A DNA stretch of 50,485 nucleotides, from IMG/VR virus record IMGVR_UViG_3300031566_000058, positions 1 to 50,485 of that record. One strand, 5' to 3'. The stretch is from a virus. Numbering within the stretch: position 1 is the first letter of the stretch; each line of letters begins with the position of its first letter. Made by a program: the position numbers and the translations under genes. Of the stretch, positions 11,955 to 37,307 are shown piece after piece. The notes below the pieces were generated by a model that saw only the letters and a program-made list of their open reading frames with translations, searched no databases and was not told the DNA's origin.

Positions 11955-12728
11955 TCAGTGAACCCTCGAACTCGGAATCAAAGGCTGCTTTCTGCGAACA
12001 TTAACACTAAGACCAATAACCGATTGTTTGCGTTTTACGCCCAGATACCTTCCCCACTTACGCTGCAAATAATCAAGGTCATCTTTATCGTTTCTCGCTG
12101 TTCTAAACTGAGTCAGCCCGCCCTTGTTGCCCCTTTTTTCCCCGACCCATACATAACGCTGATCTGACCAGATAATTCTGTGCCTCATTATGCTTGACAA
12201 GCACAAATCCAAATCCTCTTTGACGAACTGATGCTCATCGAAGCGAAGGTCGCGGCCAATTATCCCCCAACCCTGGTCAATCCACGTCACCATCCTGAAT
12301 GGATTGTTTTCATTGAATCCGACCGGCTTGTGATTCATTCCGAATCCAAACAATTTAGCCCCGGCGTCTCTTGCGCAGATATAAAGATTATCAATTATCT
12401 GCTCCACCAGGACCGGATCGAAAATAAACATGCCCTTCTCGTGAGTCATAACGTGGACAGATTCAAGATCATCATCCGCCATGAACAACGCTTCCTCGTC
12501 GAACCTGTCAAGTATCCAGTTTCTTATCTTTGGCATACCGAGAAGCGATGCGGGTATTTCAACTATTTCAGACACCAAGCCTTTCAGGTGGTCGTATTTT
12601 TCTCTTTCCTCATCTGTAACCACAAGCGTTGCGTTAGGTATCAGATTTGGCGTTGTGATCGTGTCCCACCTTCCCCGGCTCAGAATCACTTTTCTCATTG
12701 AAAAATTCTTGTAAAAAGCGTGCTCCAT
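11955..12728 (-). CDS. Glycosyltransferase-like protein (TET-associated type)
   Basis: 257 aa, ATG with GGGAG upstream inside the ParB-domain gene end. An N-terminal strand and loop (VILSRGRWDTITTPNLIPNA), then IRNWILDRFDEEALFMADDDLES with a DDD metal-binding motif at 85-87, fits GT-A-type glycosyltransferases known as TET-associated glycosyltransferases in phages, thought to glycosylate modified bases. No TET oxygenase is seen in this window, so a DNA substrate is an inference. It forms a unit with the ParB-domain gene, overlapping it by about 95 bases. Confidence 0.65.
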   Translation of the reverse strand: MEHAFYKNFSMRKVILSRGRWDTITTPNLIPNATLVVTDEEREKYDHLKGLVSEIVEIPASLLGMPKIRNWILDRFDEEALFMADDDLESVHVMTHEKGMFIFDPVLVEQIIDNLYICARDAGAKLFGFGMNHKPVGFNENNPFRMVTWIDQGWGIIGRDLRFDEHQFVKEDLDLCLSSIMRHRIIWSDQRYVWVGEKRGNKGGLTQFRTARNDKDDLDYLQRKWGRYLGVKRKQSVIGLSVNVRRKQPLIPSSRVH

Positions 12729-17090: not shown

Positions 17091-17827
17091 CAGTCACCTT
17101 CTTTCTCAACCTCTCGAAAATCATCGCATTGACAGTGGATGCAGTGTGTTGGCTTGGTCTCCCACTTACTACCGCAACGCTTGCAGACGTAGACAGTAAC
17201 ACCCTTTTTCTTCTTGGCTTGGTGCGTCGGCCGGTTCGGGTTGTTCTCGGCCTGCTCTTTCATATTCGCCGCGTCTACATATTTGCCATCCTCTTGCTGC
17301 GCGGCCATATCTCGCAACTTCCGGGCCTCCTCTTTGTTGCCTTTGTAATCCTGGACGGCGGCGGCCGCCAGAAGCTCGTTATTAAATGTGCCAAACTTGA
17401 GATTCTTTTTCTGTTTGCCGTCCCAGACGTTCGCTCTGTATGTTATCGTGCCGTCTTTCTTTGGTTTGCCCCGCGTGACGCCCTTGTGCTGCGAAAACTG
17501 GTTCCGACGCCCGCGGAGTCCGGCGATATGTTTGGGCTTTGTCTTTTCAGCCACCCGCTTTTTATACGGGCCGCGGGCCTTCTTTGCGATCGGCTTATCA
17601 ACCAACTCTTTTGCCGTCTCCTGGTTTTGTATGAACGGCTCAAACGAAGCTTCTGTCGGCTCGAACTGTGAGCAGATATCGTCGCCGAGCAAAAGGTCCG
17701 ACTCCGATCCGTCCCTGGTGCAGATCAAAGAGACCAGCTTGACAGTCCGCACGTCCCTGACCAGATAACACTTACCATCCTTTCCCATGAAAAACTTGGT
17801 CTGCTTAATCATTTCTTCCGTGATCAT
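17090..17827 (-). CDS. AP2-domain DNA-binding protein with C-terminal zinc ribbon
   Basis: 245 aa. Residues about 114-162 (HKGVTRGKPKKDGTITYRAN, then KKNLKFGTFNNELLAAAAVQ) fit an AP2/ERF three-strand plus helix domain, found in phage homing endonucleases and integrases. A zinc ribbon follows (C215, C218, C229, C232). No HNH or GIY-YIG nuclease core is visible, so it may be a regulator or a remnant of a mobile endonuclease. It overlaps the replication gene by four bases (ATGA). Confidence 0.75.
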   Translation of the reverse strand: MITEEMIKQTKFFMGKDGKCYLVRDVRTVKLVSLICTRDGSESDLLLGDDICSQFEPTEASFEPFIQNQETAKELVDKPIAKKARGPYKKRVAEKTKPKHIAGLRGRRNQFSQHKGVTRGKPKKDGTITYRANVWDGKQKKNLKFGTFNNELLAAAAVQDYKGNKEEARKLRDMAAQQEDGKYVDAANMKEQAENNPNRPTHQAKKKKGVTVYVCKRCGSKWETKPTHCIHCQCDDFREVEKEGD

Positions 17828-18771
17828 TTTTGTTTCTCCTTAAATACTCTTGCCCTGTACCCGATTTCCTCATCCATCCTTGAAAAGAAAACGGCCAACG
17901 GATTTCGACCGCTTTTTGATTCATTCGCAATATCCGCCACCCGCCTAAACACACCATCATCGAACCTTTTCGCCAGCACCTGCAGGTTGAGCCAGTTGTT
18001 GAGATTCCTGATTGCCGACCTGTCAGACTTCGAGCGTGTTTTTAAGATACCCTCCAGTACCGAGACGAACCGAAGCGAAAACGAATTAGATTGAAAATCT
18101 CCGAAATTCGTCTCATCACCATTATTGCCTGCCTGTGAGTTTTGCTGTGAGCCTTGAGATTCCGGGAGTGTTTCGTTTCGTTCTGTTTCGTTCTGTTCGG
18201 TTTCGTTTCGTTTCGTTTCGTTATATAAGCCGCCGCTTTTTTCCTGATTTTCCAGGAATTTCACGGAGTTTTCAGGGGCATTTTCACAAGTGCTTGTATT
18301 ATCAGTGCTTACGGCTTTTGCCTCATTTTCGTTTCCTGATTTTCCAGGAATTTCCTGATTTTCCAGGAATTTCACGGAGTTTCTGGAATTTTCGGGAGAC
18401 ACCTTTTGTATCCACCCAACCCCTTCATCGACAAGAACATTTAATGCAAATTCAATGCTTTCTTCGGGGACAGATAGAATCAAGGCTAGATCTTTTATCG
18501 TGGCCGGTTTCCCTCGGGCATTAAGCAGTGATCCCCTGTTACCACCAACCTCGTCGCCCGCAATTTCCAGGAATTTATGGAAAAGCCCAAAAACCTCAAA
18601 CGCCCTATCACCTGCCCGCCGCTGCATGGCAGCAAATCCGGCACTGCGAGACCGGCCGTGCCGCTTTGACCGGATATACTCAAGCGGCCTGACACGGAGC
18701 TTGTCGCCCACCCTTGCCGGCTGCCCCTTATCATTGACTTCGTAGCGCTCAATCCATTCAGTTATGATATA
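17824..18771 (-). CDS. Replication initiation-type protein with internal repeats
   Basis: 315 aa from ATG 18771 (AGGGAAGCT upstream). Residues about 45-125 (HKFLEIAGDE ... ATIKDLALILSVPEESIEFA) resemble the winged-helix domain of phage replisome organisers. The middle (130-215) is low complexity: NSVKFLENQE occurs at 132-141 and 169-178, then NET(E/K) repeats at 186-202. The C-terminal domain is helical (SDRSAIRNLNNWLNLQVLAK). The repeats fall where many phages carry the origin. The function is inferred from domain style and repeats. Confidence 0.7.
   Translation of the reverse strand, partial: YIITEWIERYEVNDKGQPARVGDKLRVRPLEYIRSKRHGRSRSAGFAAMQRRAGDRAFEVFGLFHKFLEIAGDEVGGNRGSLLNARGKPATIKDLALILSVPEESIEFALNVLVDEGVGWIQKVSPENSRNSVKFLENQEIPGKSGNENEAKAVSTDNTSTCENAPENSVKFLENQEKSGGLYNETKRNETEQNETERNETLPESQGSQQNSQAGNNGDETNFGDFQSNSFSLRFVSVLEGILKTRSKSDRSAIRNLNNWLNLQVLAKRFDDGVFRRVADIANESKSGRNPLAVFFSRMDEEIGYRARVFKEKQK
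18170..18382. repeat. Iteron-like repeats and GTTNN pentamers inside the replication gene; candidate origin
   Basis: CCTGATTTTCCAGGAATTTC occurs at 18243-18262, 18335-18354 and 18354-18373; the copies at 18243 and 18354 extend as identical 29-mers. The core TTCCAGGAA is palindromic and recurs at 18564-18575. Next to it (18170-18225) is a run of GTTTC/GTTCT/GTTCG pentamers. Lambda-type phages place iterons inside the initiator gene, so this is a candidate replication origin. Confidence 0.5.
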
Positions 18772-18785
18772 CATAGCTTCCCTGC

Positions 18786-19673
18786 TTATTCGTTCATTGC
18801 TGCATAACGTCTCGCGTACTCGACTGGTTGTTCTATTTCCTCGAAAACCAGGTGCCCGCACTTCGGACAGGGCGGCCTGGGCGGAGACATTTCATAGCCG
18901 CAACCCCTACACTCGTACCATGAAATAACCGGACCTCTCAGCTTGATTATCTCTGCCTCTGCAATCCCCCGGTGCCTGCGGTCCTCGGCCTCCTGTTTTT
19001 CGTTTCTCTTTTTAAGTTTAAGCTGAAAGCGCTGCTTTTTTGCCCGCTCTAACCGATGGCGCCTGCAGGTCTTTTTGAGATTGCGGATTGCTTTCTTTCT
19101 GTGCTCCGGATTGTTCTTTCGCATCAGGTTAATAAGGCCGTGGCGGTCAATCAATATCAGGTTCTTTGGACGATCATCCATCGTGTCGCCGTTTGTGTGG
19201 GCTACAATTTTGCCGTCGGGGATGGGGCCGTTTTCCTTTTCCCAAAGATATCGGGCACAAGGTATCCATTTATGCTTTCCCTGTATGACCCCTGAGACCT
19301 TTATCCATCTGGATTGCTTGCCGCACTTATCGTTGCGGATAGAGATTGCTCCTGTGTGTTTATGATTTGTCGGCAAGTGGCCTTTGTGGAACTCGGTTGC
19401 CCGCGAAAGGTGCATCCCCTTCATGTTCTTATTCCACGTCTCGCGTCCCTTTTTGAATTGCGTTGACTCGCTGCCCTTAACTAATTTTCTTACAGCGATT
19501 TGCCTGTATTGCCCCTTCGACATCCGCGTATAGATAGCCCTCATAATCGTAGAGTACGCGCAATGATATTCTTGCGTGAGTGCGATTAAGGTAACATTGG
19601 TAGTTTCAAGCCGTTCGACGATCCTTTCGGCGTCCGCCATGACCACGTCTGCGTTTCCTCTATACGCTCCCAT
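18786..19673 (-). CDS. HNH endonuclease with C-terminal zinc ribbon
   Basis: 295 aa, ATG with AAGGAAGC. The N-terminal part has a helix-turn-helix (LIALTQEYHCAYSTIMRAIY). Residues about 120-195 carry an HNH_3-type core: RYLWEKENGPIPDGKIVAHT then MDDRPKNLILI. A basic linker leads to a zinc ribbon (CRGCGYE ... CPKCGH). Probably a free-standing homing-type nuclease or a phage HNH protein. It sits between the replication gene and zinc-binding genes. Confidence 0.82.
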   Translation of the reverse strand: MGAYRGNADVVMADAERIVERLETTNVTLIALTQEYHCAYSTIMRAIYTRMSKGQYRQIAVRKLVKGSESTQFKKGRETWNKNMKGMHLSRATEFHKGHLPTNHKHTGAISIRNDKCGKQSRWIKVSGVIQGKHKWIPCARYLWEKENGPIPDGKIVAHTNGDTMDDRPKNLILIDRHGLINLMRKNNPEHRKKAIRNLKKTCRRHRLERAKKQRFQLKLKKRNEKQEAEDRRHRGIAEAEIIKLRGPVISWYECRGCGYEMSPPRPPCPKCGHLVFEEIEQPVEYARRYAAMNE

Positions 19674-24359: not shown

Positions 24360-24599
24360 TTAATTTTCAATGCCACTTGCTATTTTCCACGAACTTGAAT
24401 ACTCATCGGGATTGTCTAATGGTGAAGGTGGACTTGATACGCCAATATGCTTTCTATCCCCACATTCTTCACAGTAAAACCGTCTTGGCTTATTATTTTC
24501 ATCAAAAGGATTAGTCACTCTCATAGGTTCACCACAACTCCGACAATAGGCCCTAAAATACCTGCTCCCTTTTATTCTTTGTCCATGCAATTCATTCAA
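24360..24599 (-). CDS. Zinc-ribbon protein
   Basis: 79 aa. CRSC then CEEC about 25 residues later gives a zinc ribbon; basic N-terminus. The start overlaps the RecT stop by four bases, so it is translated with recT. Function unknown; might bind DNA ends with the recombinase. Confidence 0.65.
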   Translation of the reverse strand: MNELHGQRIKGSRYFRAYCRSCGEPMRVTNPFDENNKPRRFYCEECGDRKHIGVSSPPSPLDNPDEYSSSWKIASGIEN

Positions 24600-26506
24600 A
24601 ATAGGTTGCTCTTCGCGCCGGCGGTTTGGAGCCTTTCCTTTTGCTCGGCGACTTTCTTGTTTGTCTCTTCGTCTCGCAGCTCGGGATCGACCGGCTCGGG
24701 ATCGCCCTGGCCTTCGTTATCATCTTCGGCAGTTTCCGGTTCCGTTGGCTCAGTCTCAGGCTTAGAATCACCGTTACCGCCATTCTGTGCTTGCTGTCGT
24801 TCCTGCAGACGCTCTTTAAGTGCGTTGACGCCGGATTTTGTGTCTGTCTCGACTTCCCTGGACTCAACATTTCTGCTTAAATGAGCCTCAGCATCGATAT
24901 AATCATTACCGACCTCTTCCGGGAAAGCAGCCCTTAGCGCAGCCGCCTCCGCACAGTTGCCGCAGAGCATGGACAGTCCGCGACGTCTGACGACCAATAC
25001 TCCACTCGGGACACGACAACACCACACATATCCGTCTGTATTGTCGCGGATCAAAAGACCGCCCTTCAGTCGGCCCTGGCTTTGGCTGGTACGGAGCATC
25101 TTGATTTGCTCCTTGCTACTCACGGTGATGCACCAATTTGGACCGCCAATATCCGACGTGCGTTCCTTTCGGCTGCTCACTGAATAGCCCGCAATGCAGG
25201 CTGCAAGCTCGAATACCCCCAGCGTCTGCGGACTTGACGAATAAAAACGGCGCGCCGTTTTTGATGTGCAGCCATCAAATCCAATCATTGAATCGACAAG
25301 CAACCGCGCCTGGCGACGGCTCATTGTCAGAACGGCATCTCGGCTCAGGTCACCACTTTCAGTCGTCAACCCGCCGGTCGCACCGAACGAAAACCGGAAA
25401 ATCGTCTTATCGAATCGGGTGACAATGACCCGACCGGACGCTTCAACCGAATCTCCTGCGCACCGCCGGATTTGTTTTCCGTGGTGCATTCCCAGAGATT
25501 CAATCTCGGACACCTTCCGTTGACGACTGACGCCGATCTGGATTTCGTTTGCATGTCGATACCCATCACAAACGATCGCTGCTGCCAAAATAATCTGCTG
25601 GTCGCTGAATTCTGCATCCTCAGTGGAACCGGTGATCGACAGTGGAATCACGTGGCCGCCGGATGATGTGCTGCGCTCGAACACGTCCCGCGCCGAGATC
25701 TTTCCGATGGTCGTAATCATGTCGTGATTCGGCGTCACGCAGAAATTCAGCGCATTGCCGTCACAGACGATCATTTCGCCGTCATACTTCCGAGAAAATG
25801 GGACGACGTCCGTCGGCGTCAATCGACCTTCGACAACCTGCATGATCCGGCCCGTAACAAAACCGAATGGCTGAAAGCCCTGGTCCGTCAACACTTGGGT
25901 TTCGGAATCAAAACACTTGTCAATCTGGCCGCGAGGCCGTTTCTGCCACATACTATTCGGAGTGCCATTGCGGTCCTCGCCATAAGTTTCAAGCCAAAAA
26001 ACCTGCGGACCGGCATAAGCCACCCTGTGGCCCTTGAGCATCCGATAGAGGGTCACTTGCGCCCATTCAGGGAATGTCACTGTTTTCTTATAGGCGCCCT
26101 TCTTTTCGTCCACTCCCTCCCATGTTTGCGTCTGCATCGGGCCAAATTCTGTTTTGTCCCGACCTGCATAGTCTTTTGTCCGGTGGGCGGTGGTCCGAAC
26201 CTCGCCGATGCCCGGCCAAATGGTATCAATATAGCATCGTCTTTGTTTGTCCCAAATAGGAACGATATGGATGCAACGTTTGAAGGGGTCCAGTTTACGA
26301 GCCTTGCAGTAACTCAATGCCAGAACCACCGACTCAGTGGACTGCGCGTTTGGAAAGATTGCCTCGACCAATGCTTTCCATCCAGAGCGGTCAATTCCGA
26401 ACCTTTCCTCTATCGCCGGATGATAGGGCAAACGAGGCCCCGCGATAATAGGCAAATTATCCTGCTCTTTATCAGGAACATTGTTTGTTTGCTGTTTTTT
26501 AGACAT
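24596..26506 (-). CDS. RecT/Bet-family single-strand annealing protein interrupted by an intein
   Basis: 636 aa precursor. Exteins (1-197 and 518-636, about 316 aa together) match the Bet/RecT family: LALSYCKARKLDPFKRCIHI, then GPQVFWLETYGEDR and RPRGQIDK|CAEAAALRAAFPEE, the latter being a highly conserved RecT segment split exactly at the Cys. The intein occupies residues 198-517. After splicing the protein would anneal complementary strands at phage recombination with the exonuclease gene just upstream (26517-27452). The C-terminus is acidic and Gln-rich. Confidence 0.92.
   Translation of the reverse strand: MSKKQQTNNVPDKEQDNLPIIAGPRLPYHPAIEERFGIDRSGWKALVEAIFPNAQSTESVVLALSYCKARKLDPFKRCIHIVPIWDKQRRCYIDTIWPGIGEVRTTAHRTKDYAGRDKTEFGPMQTQTWEGVDEKKGAYKKTVTFPEWAQVTLYRMLKGHRVAYAGPQVFWLETYGEDRNGTPNSMWQKRPRGQIDKCFDSETQVLTDQGFQPFGFVTGRIMQVVEGRLTPTDVVPFSRKYDGEMIVCDGNALNFCVTPNHDMITTIGKISARDVFERSTSSGGHVIPLSITGSTEDAEFSDQQIILAAAIVCDGYRHANEIQIGVSRQRKVSEIESLGMHHGKQIRRCAGDSVEASGRVIVTRFDKTIFRFSFGATGGLTTESGDLSRDAVLTMSRRQARLLVDSMIGFDGCTSKTARRFYSSSPQTLGVFELAACIAGYSVSSRKERTSDIGGPNWCITVSSKEQIKMLRTSQSQGRLKGGLLIRDNTDGYVWCCRVPSGVLVVRRRGLSMLCGNCAEAAALRAAFPEEVGNDYIDAEAHLSRNVESREVETDTKSGVNALKERLQERQQAQNGGNGDSKPETEPTEPETAEDDNEGQGDPEPVDPELRDEETNKKVAEQKERLQTAGAKSNLF
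24956..25915 (-). mobile_element. Intein within RecT, with degenerate LAGLIDADG-type insert
   Basis: 320 residues (198-517 of the precursor). Block A CFDSETQVLTDQGFQPF begins with Cys1; block B has TPNHDM (TxxH); the end is GLSMLCGN followed by Cys518 (+1). The penultimate residue is Gly, not the usual His. Between the splicing blocks, ILAAAIVCDGY and LLVDSMIGFDGC resemble the two DOD/LAGLIDADG motifs, so a homing endonuclease or its remnant is present. Boundaries are set by the conserved flanking RecT sequence. Confidence 0.9.
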
Positions 26507-26516
26507 GATTTTCTCC

Positions 26517-27452
26517 TTACAATTTAATTGATGATAGGTTGTATTCTCTTTTAACTTTTTTCAGCCTCGTATCACGGCACTTCGATATCTTCGTGTACTT
26601 GGCTGCAATTTCCGGCAGTTCCTTTCGAAGTCTCTCTACATCAATGAGACGCGAGCATTGCTCGAAATAGGTGAGCATCATAGGCTTGCCATCCAAAGCA
26701 AACGTGCCGGCCTCGGCGTCACCCAACGCTGTGAGCATCGCAGACCTGGCATCCTCAAGAACGGCCTCTGCCCATTTAACTTTGCCCTTTGCATCCTCAT
26801 ATTCCTTGACCAGCTTGGCGTCAAGCTCAACGGTCTTATTGGGGACACGTTTGATTCGTTTAATAAACTCGGGGCTTGGCGTGATGTTTTCTGGCGGTGT
26901 ATCGTTTTCAACACAATCCCAAAAATCCAAAGCCGCCTCCAGAACCGCATCGTTGATAACCGGATCCCGTTTGACCTCGTACATATTGAAGCCCTTTCCT
27001 CCGAGGAAGGCGGGCACGTAACAGACGCTACGGTCGGTGCATATCATGTGGACGTGGCATTGAATTAGTATCCCGTCAGGCAAATGGTCCGAGCCGGCCT
27101 CACCCCATCCGTCAGTAAGCGGCCCGAACAGTCCCGACGTTTTAGCTTCGACCGGATCGTCCGTACTGATAATCTGGGCGTCAAGATGATCTATCAAGTG
27201 GAACTCTTCCAAAAACAGTTCGACGTTTCTTCGCAATGGGCCGAGCTGCTTTTCCGCCCAGTCAATCACTCCCGGCTCAAAAAGCGTCCCGGCCAGCATA
27301 GCTTCGTTAGGCTCGAAATCGCTCGTTCGATTTGTCTTGTCTAACCAAATGTCGTGGGCGTTCTTGTATTTGTCAAATCCAAGAATTGCGGCCATATCAG
27401 AAGAACCGATATAGCCCTTACGCTTCAATCGTTCTTCTTCTGTAATTGGCAT
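26517..27452 (-). CDS. YqaJ-type viral exonuclease/recombinase
   Basis: 311 aa, ATG with AGGAG. N-terminal IGSSDMAAILGFDKYKNAHD and AMLAGTLFEPGVIDWAEKQ, then VEAKTSG and LPDGILIQCHVHM, fit the YqaJ/lambda-exonuclease-like nuclease core (Glu/Asp/Lys in EAKTS, Gln in IQCH). It resects DNA 5' ends to make substrate for the RecT protein encoded immediately downstream. The C-terminal 100 residues are helical. Good confidence by motif and gene pair. Confidence 0.87.
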   Translation of the reverse strand: MPITEEERLKRKGYIGSSDMAAILGFDKYKNAHDIWLDKTNRTSDFEPNEAMLAGTLFEPGVIDWAEKQLGPLRRNVELFLEEFHLIDHLDAQIISTDDPVEAKTSGLFGPLTDGWGEAGSDHLPDGILIQCHVHMICTDRSVCYVPAFLGGKGFNMYEVKRDPVINDAVLEAALDFWDCVENDTPPENITPSPEFIKRIKRVPNKTVELDAKLVKEYEDAKGKVKWAEAVLEDARSAMLTALGDAEAGTFALDGKPMMLTYFEQCSRLIDVERLRKELPEIAAKYTKISKCRDTRLKKVKREYNLSSIKL

Positions 27453-37197: not shown

Positions 37198-37230
37198 CTT
37201 GCTACCCTTTCAATGAGCACAATTGCTCAA

Positions 37231-37305
37231 TGCCCCGAACGGGAGTCGAACCCGCCATCCTCTCTGCTTCTAAACAGAGCGCTCTATCCGTTAAGCTATC
37301 AGGGA
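37231..37305 (-). tRNA. tRNA with an eight-base anticodon loop
   Basis: A 75-base cloverleaf: acceptor TCCCTGA/TCGGGGC with one mismatch and one G-U, D arm GCTT-AACGGATA-GAGC, anticodon stem CTCTG/CAGAG, T arm GCGGG-TTCGACT-CCCGT, final A73. The anticodon loop is TTTAGAAG, eight bases instead of seven. The reading could be UAG or a four-base UAGA; the variable loop is short (not Leu or Ser). Identity is left open; it may be a frameshift-suppressor-like or decayed tRNA. Confidence 0.72.
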
Positions 37306-37307
37306 AA

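What the first reader, a model, noticed from the sequence alone, without database searches (positions are those of the whole stretch)
24956..25915. Intein in a RecT/Bet single-strand annealing protein
The conserved RecT segment GQIDK|CAEAAALR is split exactly at its Cys by a 320-residue in-frame insert with Cys1, a block B TPNHDM, two DOD-like motifs (LAAAIVCDGY, VDSMIGFDGC) and a terminal GN before Cys+1. Inteins favour replication and recombination genes, but RecT is an uncommon host, and the penultimate Gly instead of His suggests either an atypical splicing route or a weakened intein.
Basis: partly seen in the sequence, partly recalled or inferred. Interest (0 to 1): 0.85.

Follow-up and report, generated by a model that had tools for sequence, protein, structure and literature searches.

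The report
Self-splicing intein in phage RecT gene
A phage's DNA-annealing recombination protein (RecT/Bet) carries a self-removing protein insert (an intein) exactly in its DNA-binding site, and the same insert sits at the same place in at least 21 other phage or prophage lineages, so it is a recurrent mobile element rather than a one-off or a broken one.

Summary
ORF 24596-26506 (-) is a Bet/RecT single-strand annealing protein interrupted between Lys197 and Cys by a 320-residue in-frame insert (24956-25915). The insert is a full-length class 1 intein with a LAGLIDADG endonuclease: its model (pLDDT 88) matches whole inteins (TliVMA, PI-SceI) in the PDB, and end-to-end homologues interrupt phage polymerase, RNR, NAMPT and PhoH genes, although Pfam and NCBIfam give no match. 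The same insertion is present in 21 further distinct RecT genes from three PHROG families. One occupied gene (L005) is 95% identical over 2.4 kb to an empty one (Aeromonas phage phiARM81mr), with a clean insertion. The site aligns between lambda Redbeta His153 and Lys154, two DNA-contacting residues, so unspliced protein should be inactive.

Gly is the norm in this phage-intein group (93 of 99; His in 1). A mycobacteriophage RDF intein with penultimate Gly splices to completion, and changing it to His slows splicing (PMC5050341).

Verdict: real; a new insertion site for a known kind of element; moderately interesting. Splicing itself is inferred, not shown.

The parts
24596..26506 (-). recT/bet precursor ORF, 636 aa, preceded by an AAGGAG Shine-Dalgarno-like sequence
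   Evidence: TIGR01913 E 1.4e-25, PF03837 E 4.4e-14, phrog_2449 E 9.3e-52
25916..26506 (-). N-extein, residues 1-197, ends ...RGQIDK
   Evidence: alignment; AF2 model has lambda Redbeta 7UJL as its only PDB hit below 1e-3
24956..25915 (-). intein, 320 aa, Cys1 to Asn320
25913..25915 (-). Cys1, first nucleophile (class 1)
   Evidence: invariant in alignment A1
25718..25735 (-). block B TPNHDM (residues 61-66; Thr B:7, His B:10)
   Evidence: invariant in alignment A1
25559..25588 (-). LAGLIDADG motif 1, LAAAIVCDGY, catalytic Asp117
   Evidence: D117-G118 invariant; I-DmoI fold matches
25268..25297 (-). LAGLIDADG motif 2, VDSMIGFDGC, catalytic Asp214
   Evidence: D214-G215 invariant
24956..25027 (-). 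blocks F and G, VWCCRVPSGVLVVRRRGLSMLCGN: Cys at F:4, Gly at the usual block-F His position, penultimate Gly, terminal Asn
24596..24955 (-). C-extein, begins with Cys+1 (CAEAAALRAAFPEE...), 119 aa and stop
26517..27452 (-). RecE-like exonuclease, partner gene immediately upstream
   Evidence: phrog_434 E 8.4e-57

Best explanation
It is a full-length class 1 intein with an embedded LAGLIDADG homing endonuclease, at an insertion site for which I found no earlier report (RecT/Bet, K|C, equivalent to lambda Redbeta 153|154). After translation, Cys1 attacks the Lys197-Cys1 bond, the N-extein moves to Cys+1, Asn320 cyclises (in an active site that manages without the penultimate His), and a 316-aa RecT is released. 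At the DNA level, the endonuclease cuts intein-free recT genes at the codons for the DNA-binding helix, and repair copies the intein in. Shown here: identity, fold, precise insertion at one site, near-identical empty and occupied alleles, intact catalytic residues, and some conflict between intein and host-gene trees. Inferred: splicing, cleavage and homing activity, and inactivity of the unspliced precursor.
For: Fold: AF2 model pLDDT 88 matches TliVMA, PhoVMA and PI-SceI inteins (best E 8e-11) and I-DmoI LAGLIDADG nucleases. Homology over residues 1-320 to inserts in phage NAMPT, DNA polymerase, RNR, thymidylate synthase and PhoH genes. 22 distinct RecT inteins, window included, at one column, in hosts matching phrog_2449, 2780 and 2760. 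L005 versus phiARM81mr: 95.1% DNA identity over 2,423 aligned columns with a clean insertion, and nine synonymous differences within -27..+21 of the junction next to 428 identical bases, as short co-conversion would leave. Intein data reject the host-gene clade L025/L026/L028 (AU p 0.004); host data reject the intein pair L007/L030 (p 7e-6). Nonsynonymous change is below synonymous change in both Hint and endonuclease parts. Penultimate-Gly precedent: PMC5050341.
Against: No Pfam or NCBIfam intein profile matches. No splicing or cleavage measured. Both assisting histidines (block F and penultimate) are absent in this copy. Synonymous sites are saturated, so the selection estimate is rough. Window, L012 and L029 group together in both trees, so recent movement is not shown for this copy itself. 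The clades for the AU tests were chosen after seeing the trees.
Confidence: 0.95

Rival explanations
1. A weakened or regulated intein: the missing penultimate and block-F histidines slow splicing, so RecT appears late or only on a trigger such as ssDNA or a redox change.
For: Both assisting His positions are Gly; Cys residues at 1, F:4, G:5 and +1 lie near the active site; a RadA intein that splices in response to ssDNA is known (Lennon 2016, as cited in PMC8987985).
Against: The same Gly/Gly/Cys-F:4 arrangement occurs in Mycobacterium phage Sumter gp48, whose 317-aa intein has R157 and G316 exactly as numbered for the Bethlehem RDF intein, and that intein splices completely at time zero (PMC5050341). 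All catalytic residues are intact here.
Confidence: 0.1
2. A class 3 intein that starts splicing from the block-F Cys.
For: Cys at F:4 (VWC) in this family.
Against: Cys1 is present and invariant, and the W and T of the WCT signature are absent here (Met at B:12, Cys at G:5) (definition in PMC5050341).
Confidence: 0.03
3. The insert is an ordinary extra domain of RecT that stays in the protein.
For: It is in frame and present in many RecT genes.
Against: It splits the DNA-binding helix at the Redbeta 153|154 position, has intein fold and nucleophiles, and close relatives lack it cleanly.
Confidence: 0.01

Closest known systems
Mycobacteriophage RDF (phosphoesterase) intein, Bethlehem gp51 / Sumter gp48
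   Same: class 1, about 320 aa with endonuclease, Cys at F:4, Gly at the block-F His position, penultimate Gly, homologous by tblastn (E 6e-6)
   Different: host gene is a phosphoesterase/RDF; +1 is Ser; about 23% identity
Phage inteins in RNR, DNA polymerase, NAMPT, PhoH and thymidylate synthase
   Same: end-to-end homologues, same Gly-Asn type of ending in relatives
   Different: 20-27% identity, different host genes and sites
Yeast PI-SceI and archaeal VMA inteins
   Same: same two-part Hint plus LAGLIDADG architecture
   Different: about 10-12% identity; penultimate His (general knowledge); ATPase hosts
RecA and RadA inteins
   Same: host is a recombination protein (general knowledge)
   Different: RecT/Bet is an unrelated annealase fold; the insertion sites are not homologous

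Membership tests
class 1 intein | nucleophile (Cys/Ser/Thr) at position 1 | tested here: met
   Cys1 invariant in RecT inteins
class 1 intein | block B TxxH | tested here: met
   TPNH, residues 61-64
class 1 intein | terminal Asn (or Gln) and Cys/Ser/Thr at +1 | tested here: met
   Asn320, Cys+1
class 1 intein | penultimate His (usual, not obligatory) | tested here: not met
   Gly; about 5% of functional inteins lack this His (PMC4031507) and Gly is the norm in this phage group
class 1 intein | Hint fold | tested here: met
   Foldseek to solved whole inteins, best E 8e-11, TM about 0.5, high rmsd because the two domains are placed differently
class 1 intein | precise in-frame insertion, host gene intact without it | tested here: met
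class 1 intein | protein splicing | not testable with these tools
   needs expression
class 3 intein | no nucleophile at position 1, WCT motif | tested here: not met
   Cys1 present; Met and Cys in place of W and T
LAGLIDADG homing endonuclease | two motifs with catalytic Asp and matching fold | tested here: met
   D117 and D214 invariant; I-DmoI matches
LAGLIDADG homing endonuclease | cleaves the empty allele | not testable with these tools
   indirect only: occupied/empty pair
RecT/Redbeta (Bet) annealing protein | family profile and fold | tested here: met
   TIGR01913 above cut-off, 7UJL match, hhalign to lambda Bet 97%

The most novel reading that the evidence does not exclude
The intein is a regulatory switch that holds the phage annealase inactive until ssDNA (or a redox signal) triggers splicing, coupling RecT activation, and possibly repair of the break its own endonuclease makes, to DNA damage.
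Probability: 0.07. Interest if true: 0.8.

Novelty: new member of a known kind. Interest (0 to 1): 0.45.

Why it matters
It adds phage RecT/Bet annealases, the enzymes behind recombineering, to the proteins invaded by inteins, and shows one site hit across three RecT families. A homing element living inside the gene whose product promotes recombination makes it testable whether the host annealase helps the intein's own spread. It also shows that Pfam misses this group of phage inteins, so RecT genes that carry them are easily misread, and it supplies natural active sites without the usual histidines for splicing chemistry.

Tried and rejected
Pfam on the insert alone and on six homologues: no usable hit. 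Sequence and profile searches of the PDB with intein or extein: nothing relevant; only folds matched. L016 in E. coli genomes and the L003 intein in plasmids: no match. A fixed DNA pattern at the junction: no hits; the site is conserved as protein more than as DNA. Papers with both 'intein' and 'RecT' or 'Redbeta': none that I read reports a RecT intein, but most subscription papers and the InBase list were not searchable. Bethlehem's own record was not held, so Sumter was used. L082 was left out of the trees because its C-extein is not RecT-like. A class 3 mechanism was considered and rejected (Cys1 present, no WCT).

Full report
What is there. ORF 24596-26506 on the minus strand encodes 636 aa. 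It matches Bet/RecT profiles (TIGR01913 E 1.4e-25, PF03837 E 4.4e-14, phrog_2449 E 9.3e-52) in two stretches separated by an unmatched 320 aa. The gene directly upstream is a RecE-like exonuclease (phrog_434), so this is a RecET-type recombination pair in a tailed phage with an integrase (integrase, terminase, portal, tape measure). The record is a 50,485-bp virus record.

The insert is an intein. Pfam-A finds nothing in the 320 aa and little in relatives, but tblastn against annotated phages aligns residues 1-320 to inserts in genes annotated as nicotinamide phosphoribosyltransferase, DNA polymerase, ribonucleotide reductase, thymidylate synthase and PhoH. An AlphaFold model (mean pLDDT 88) matches solved whole inteins (TliVMA, PhoVMA, PI-SceI; best E 8e-11) and the LAGLIDADG nuclease I-DmoI. 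Cys1, TPNH, both DG motifs and Cys+1 are in place; Asp117 and Asp214 are invariant in the first seven RecT inteins aligned.

One site, many phages. Scans of viral contigs and GTDB genomes gave 21 further distinct RecT genes with a homologous insert at the identical K|C column. Their N-exteins match phrog_2449, phrog_2780 or phrog_2760, and in the ten most divergent ones tested most end at the same profile position of their family. Intein-free RecT of Xanthomonas, Klebsiella, Aeromonas and Pasteurella phages reads straight through the site.

Mobility. With the flanks joined, L005 is 95.1% identical over 2,423 aligned columns to the intein-free Aeromonas phage phiARM81mr, and the insertion is clean. 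No mismatch lies between -498 and -69 of the junction, then nine mismatches, all synonymous and at third codon positions, fall between -27 and +21. That is what short co-conversion during homing would leave, though windows with as many mismatches make up about 4% of this region, so it is only suggestive. Intein and host trees partly disagree: the intein data reject the host clade L025/L026/L028 (p 0.004), and the host data reject the intein pair L007/L030 (p 7e-6). The window's own intein groups with L012 and L029 in both trees, so for this copy no recent transfer is shown.

Where it sits. Aligned without gaps from Trp187 to the Arg eight residues after Lys197 in the spliced protein, the family matches lambda Redbeta W143 to R161, and the insertion falls between H153 and K154. 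W143, H153, K154 and R161 hold the template strand (PMC9512822). The unspliced protein is therefore expected not to anneal DNA (inference). Lambda Bet has Lys where the intein needs Cys+1. The N-extein model's only PDB hit below 1e-3 is Redbeta 7UJL (low TM-score, so the match rests on local structure).

Penultimate Gly. Among 99 distinct relatives counted (RecT and other hosts), 93 have Gly and one has His. The RDF intein of mycobacteriophage Bethlehem has penultimate Gly and splices completely, while G316H needs more than 5 h for half completion (PMC5050341). Sumter gp48, a phosphoesterase as in that RDF family, carries a 317-aa intein with R157 and G316, the numbering used in that paper, and with Gly at the block-F His position and Cys at F:4, the same arrangement as here. 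That it is the same allele as Bethlehem's is an inference. About 5% of functional inteins lack the penultimate His (PMC4031507).

A side result. Three RecT inteins (L006, L025, L028) end in Gln. Across 99 inteins, 11 of 13 with terminal Gln have His at the block-F position against 19 of 86 with Asn (Fisher p 2e-5). Allowing for kinship, independent pairs go the expected way about 4 to 0, too few for significance. It suggests that Gln cyclisation leans on the block-F His; this is a lead, not a result.

Verdict. A genuine, probably active, class 1 homing intein at an insertion site for which I found no report. The kind of element is well known; the host and site are the new part. Splicing, cleavage and homing remain unmeasured.

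Noticed in passing
L006, L025, L028 (RecT inteins); L052, L100, L103, L106, L108, L111, L127, L157 (other hosts): Terminal Gln instead of Asn goes with His at the block-F position (11 of 13 versus 19 of 86 with Asn), suggesting a linked catalytic change.
   Followed up: partly
RecT inteins at large (window, L002, L005, L012, L016, L026, L028): The group is invisible to Pfam-A intein and LAGLIDADG models at normal cut-offs.
   Followed up: partly
L009:4704-7163: A gene resembling ribonucleotide reductase small subunit carries two intein-like inserts in one ORF.
   Followed up: no
L082:2475-3591: RecT N-half and intein followed by a C-part that is not RecT (CSYPDRREVY...), near a contig end; chimera, fragment or natural loss of the C-extein.
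   Followed up: no
window 11955-12728 (-): Protein similar to phrog_842, beta-glucosyl-HMC alpha-glucosyltransferase (E 1.9e-17), hinting at modified phage DNA.
   Followed up: no
window 18786-19673 (-): HNH endonuclease (phrog_1891, E 2.4e-24) overlapping the next ORF, 17824-18861, which has no PHROG match.
   Followed up: no
window 37230-37306 (-): ARAGORN reports a tRNA with a four-base anticodon (taga), type undetermined.
   Followed up: no
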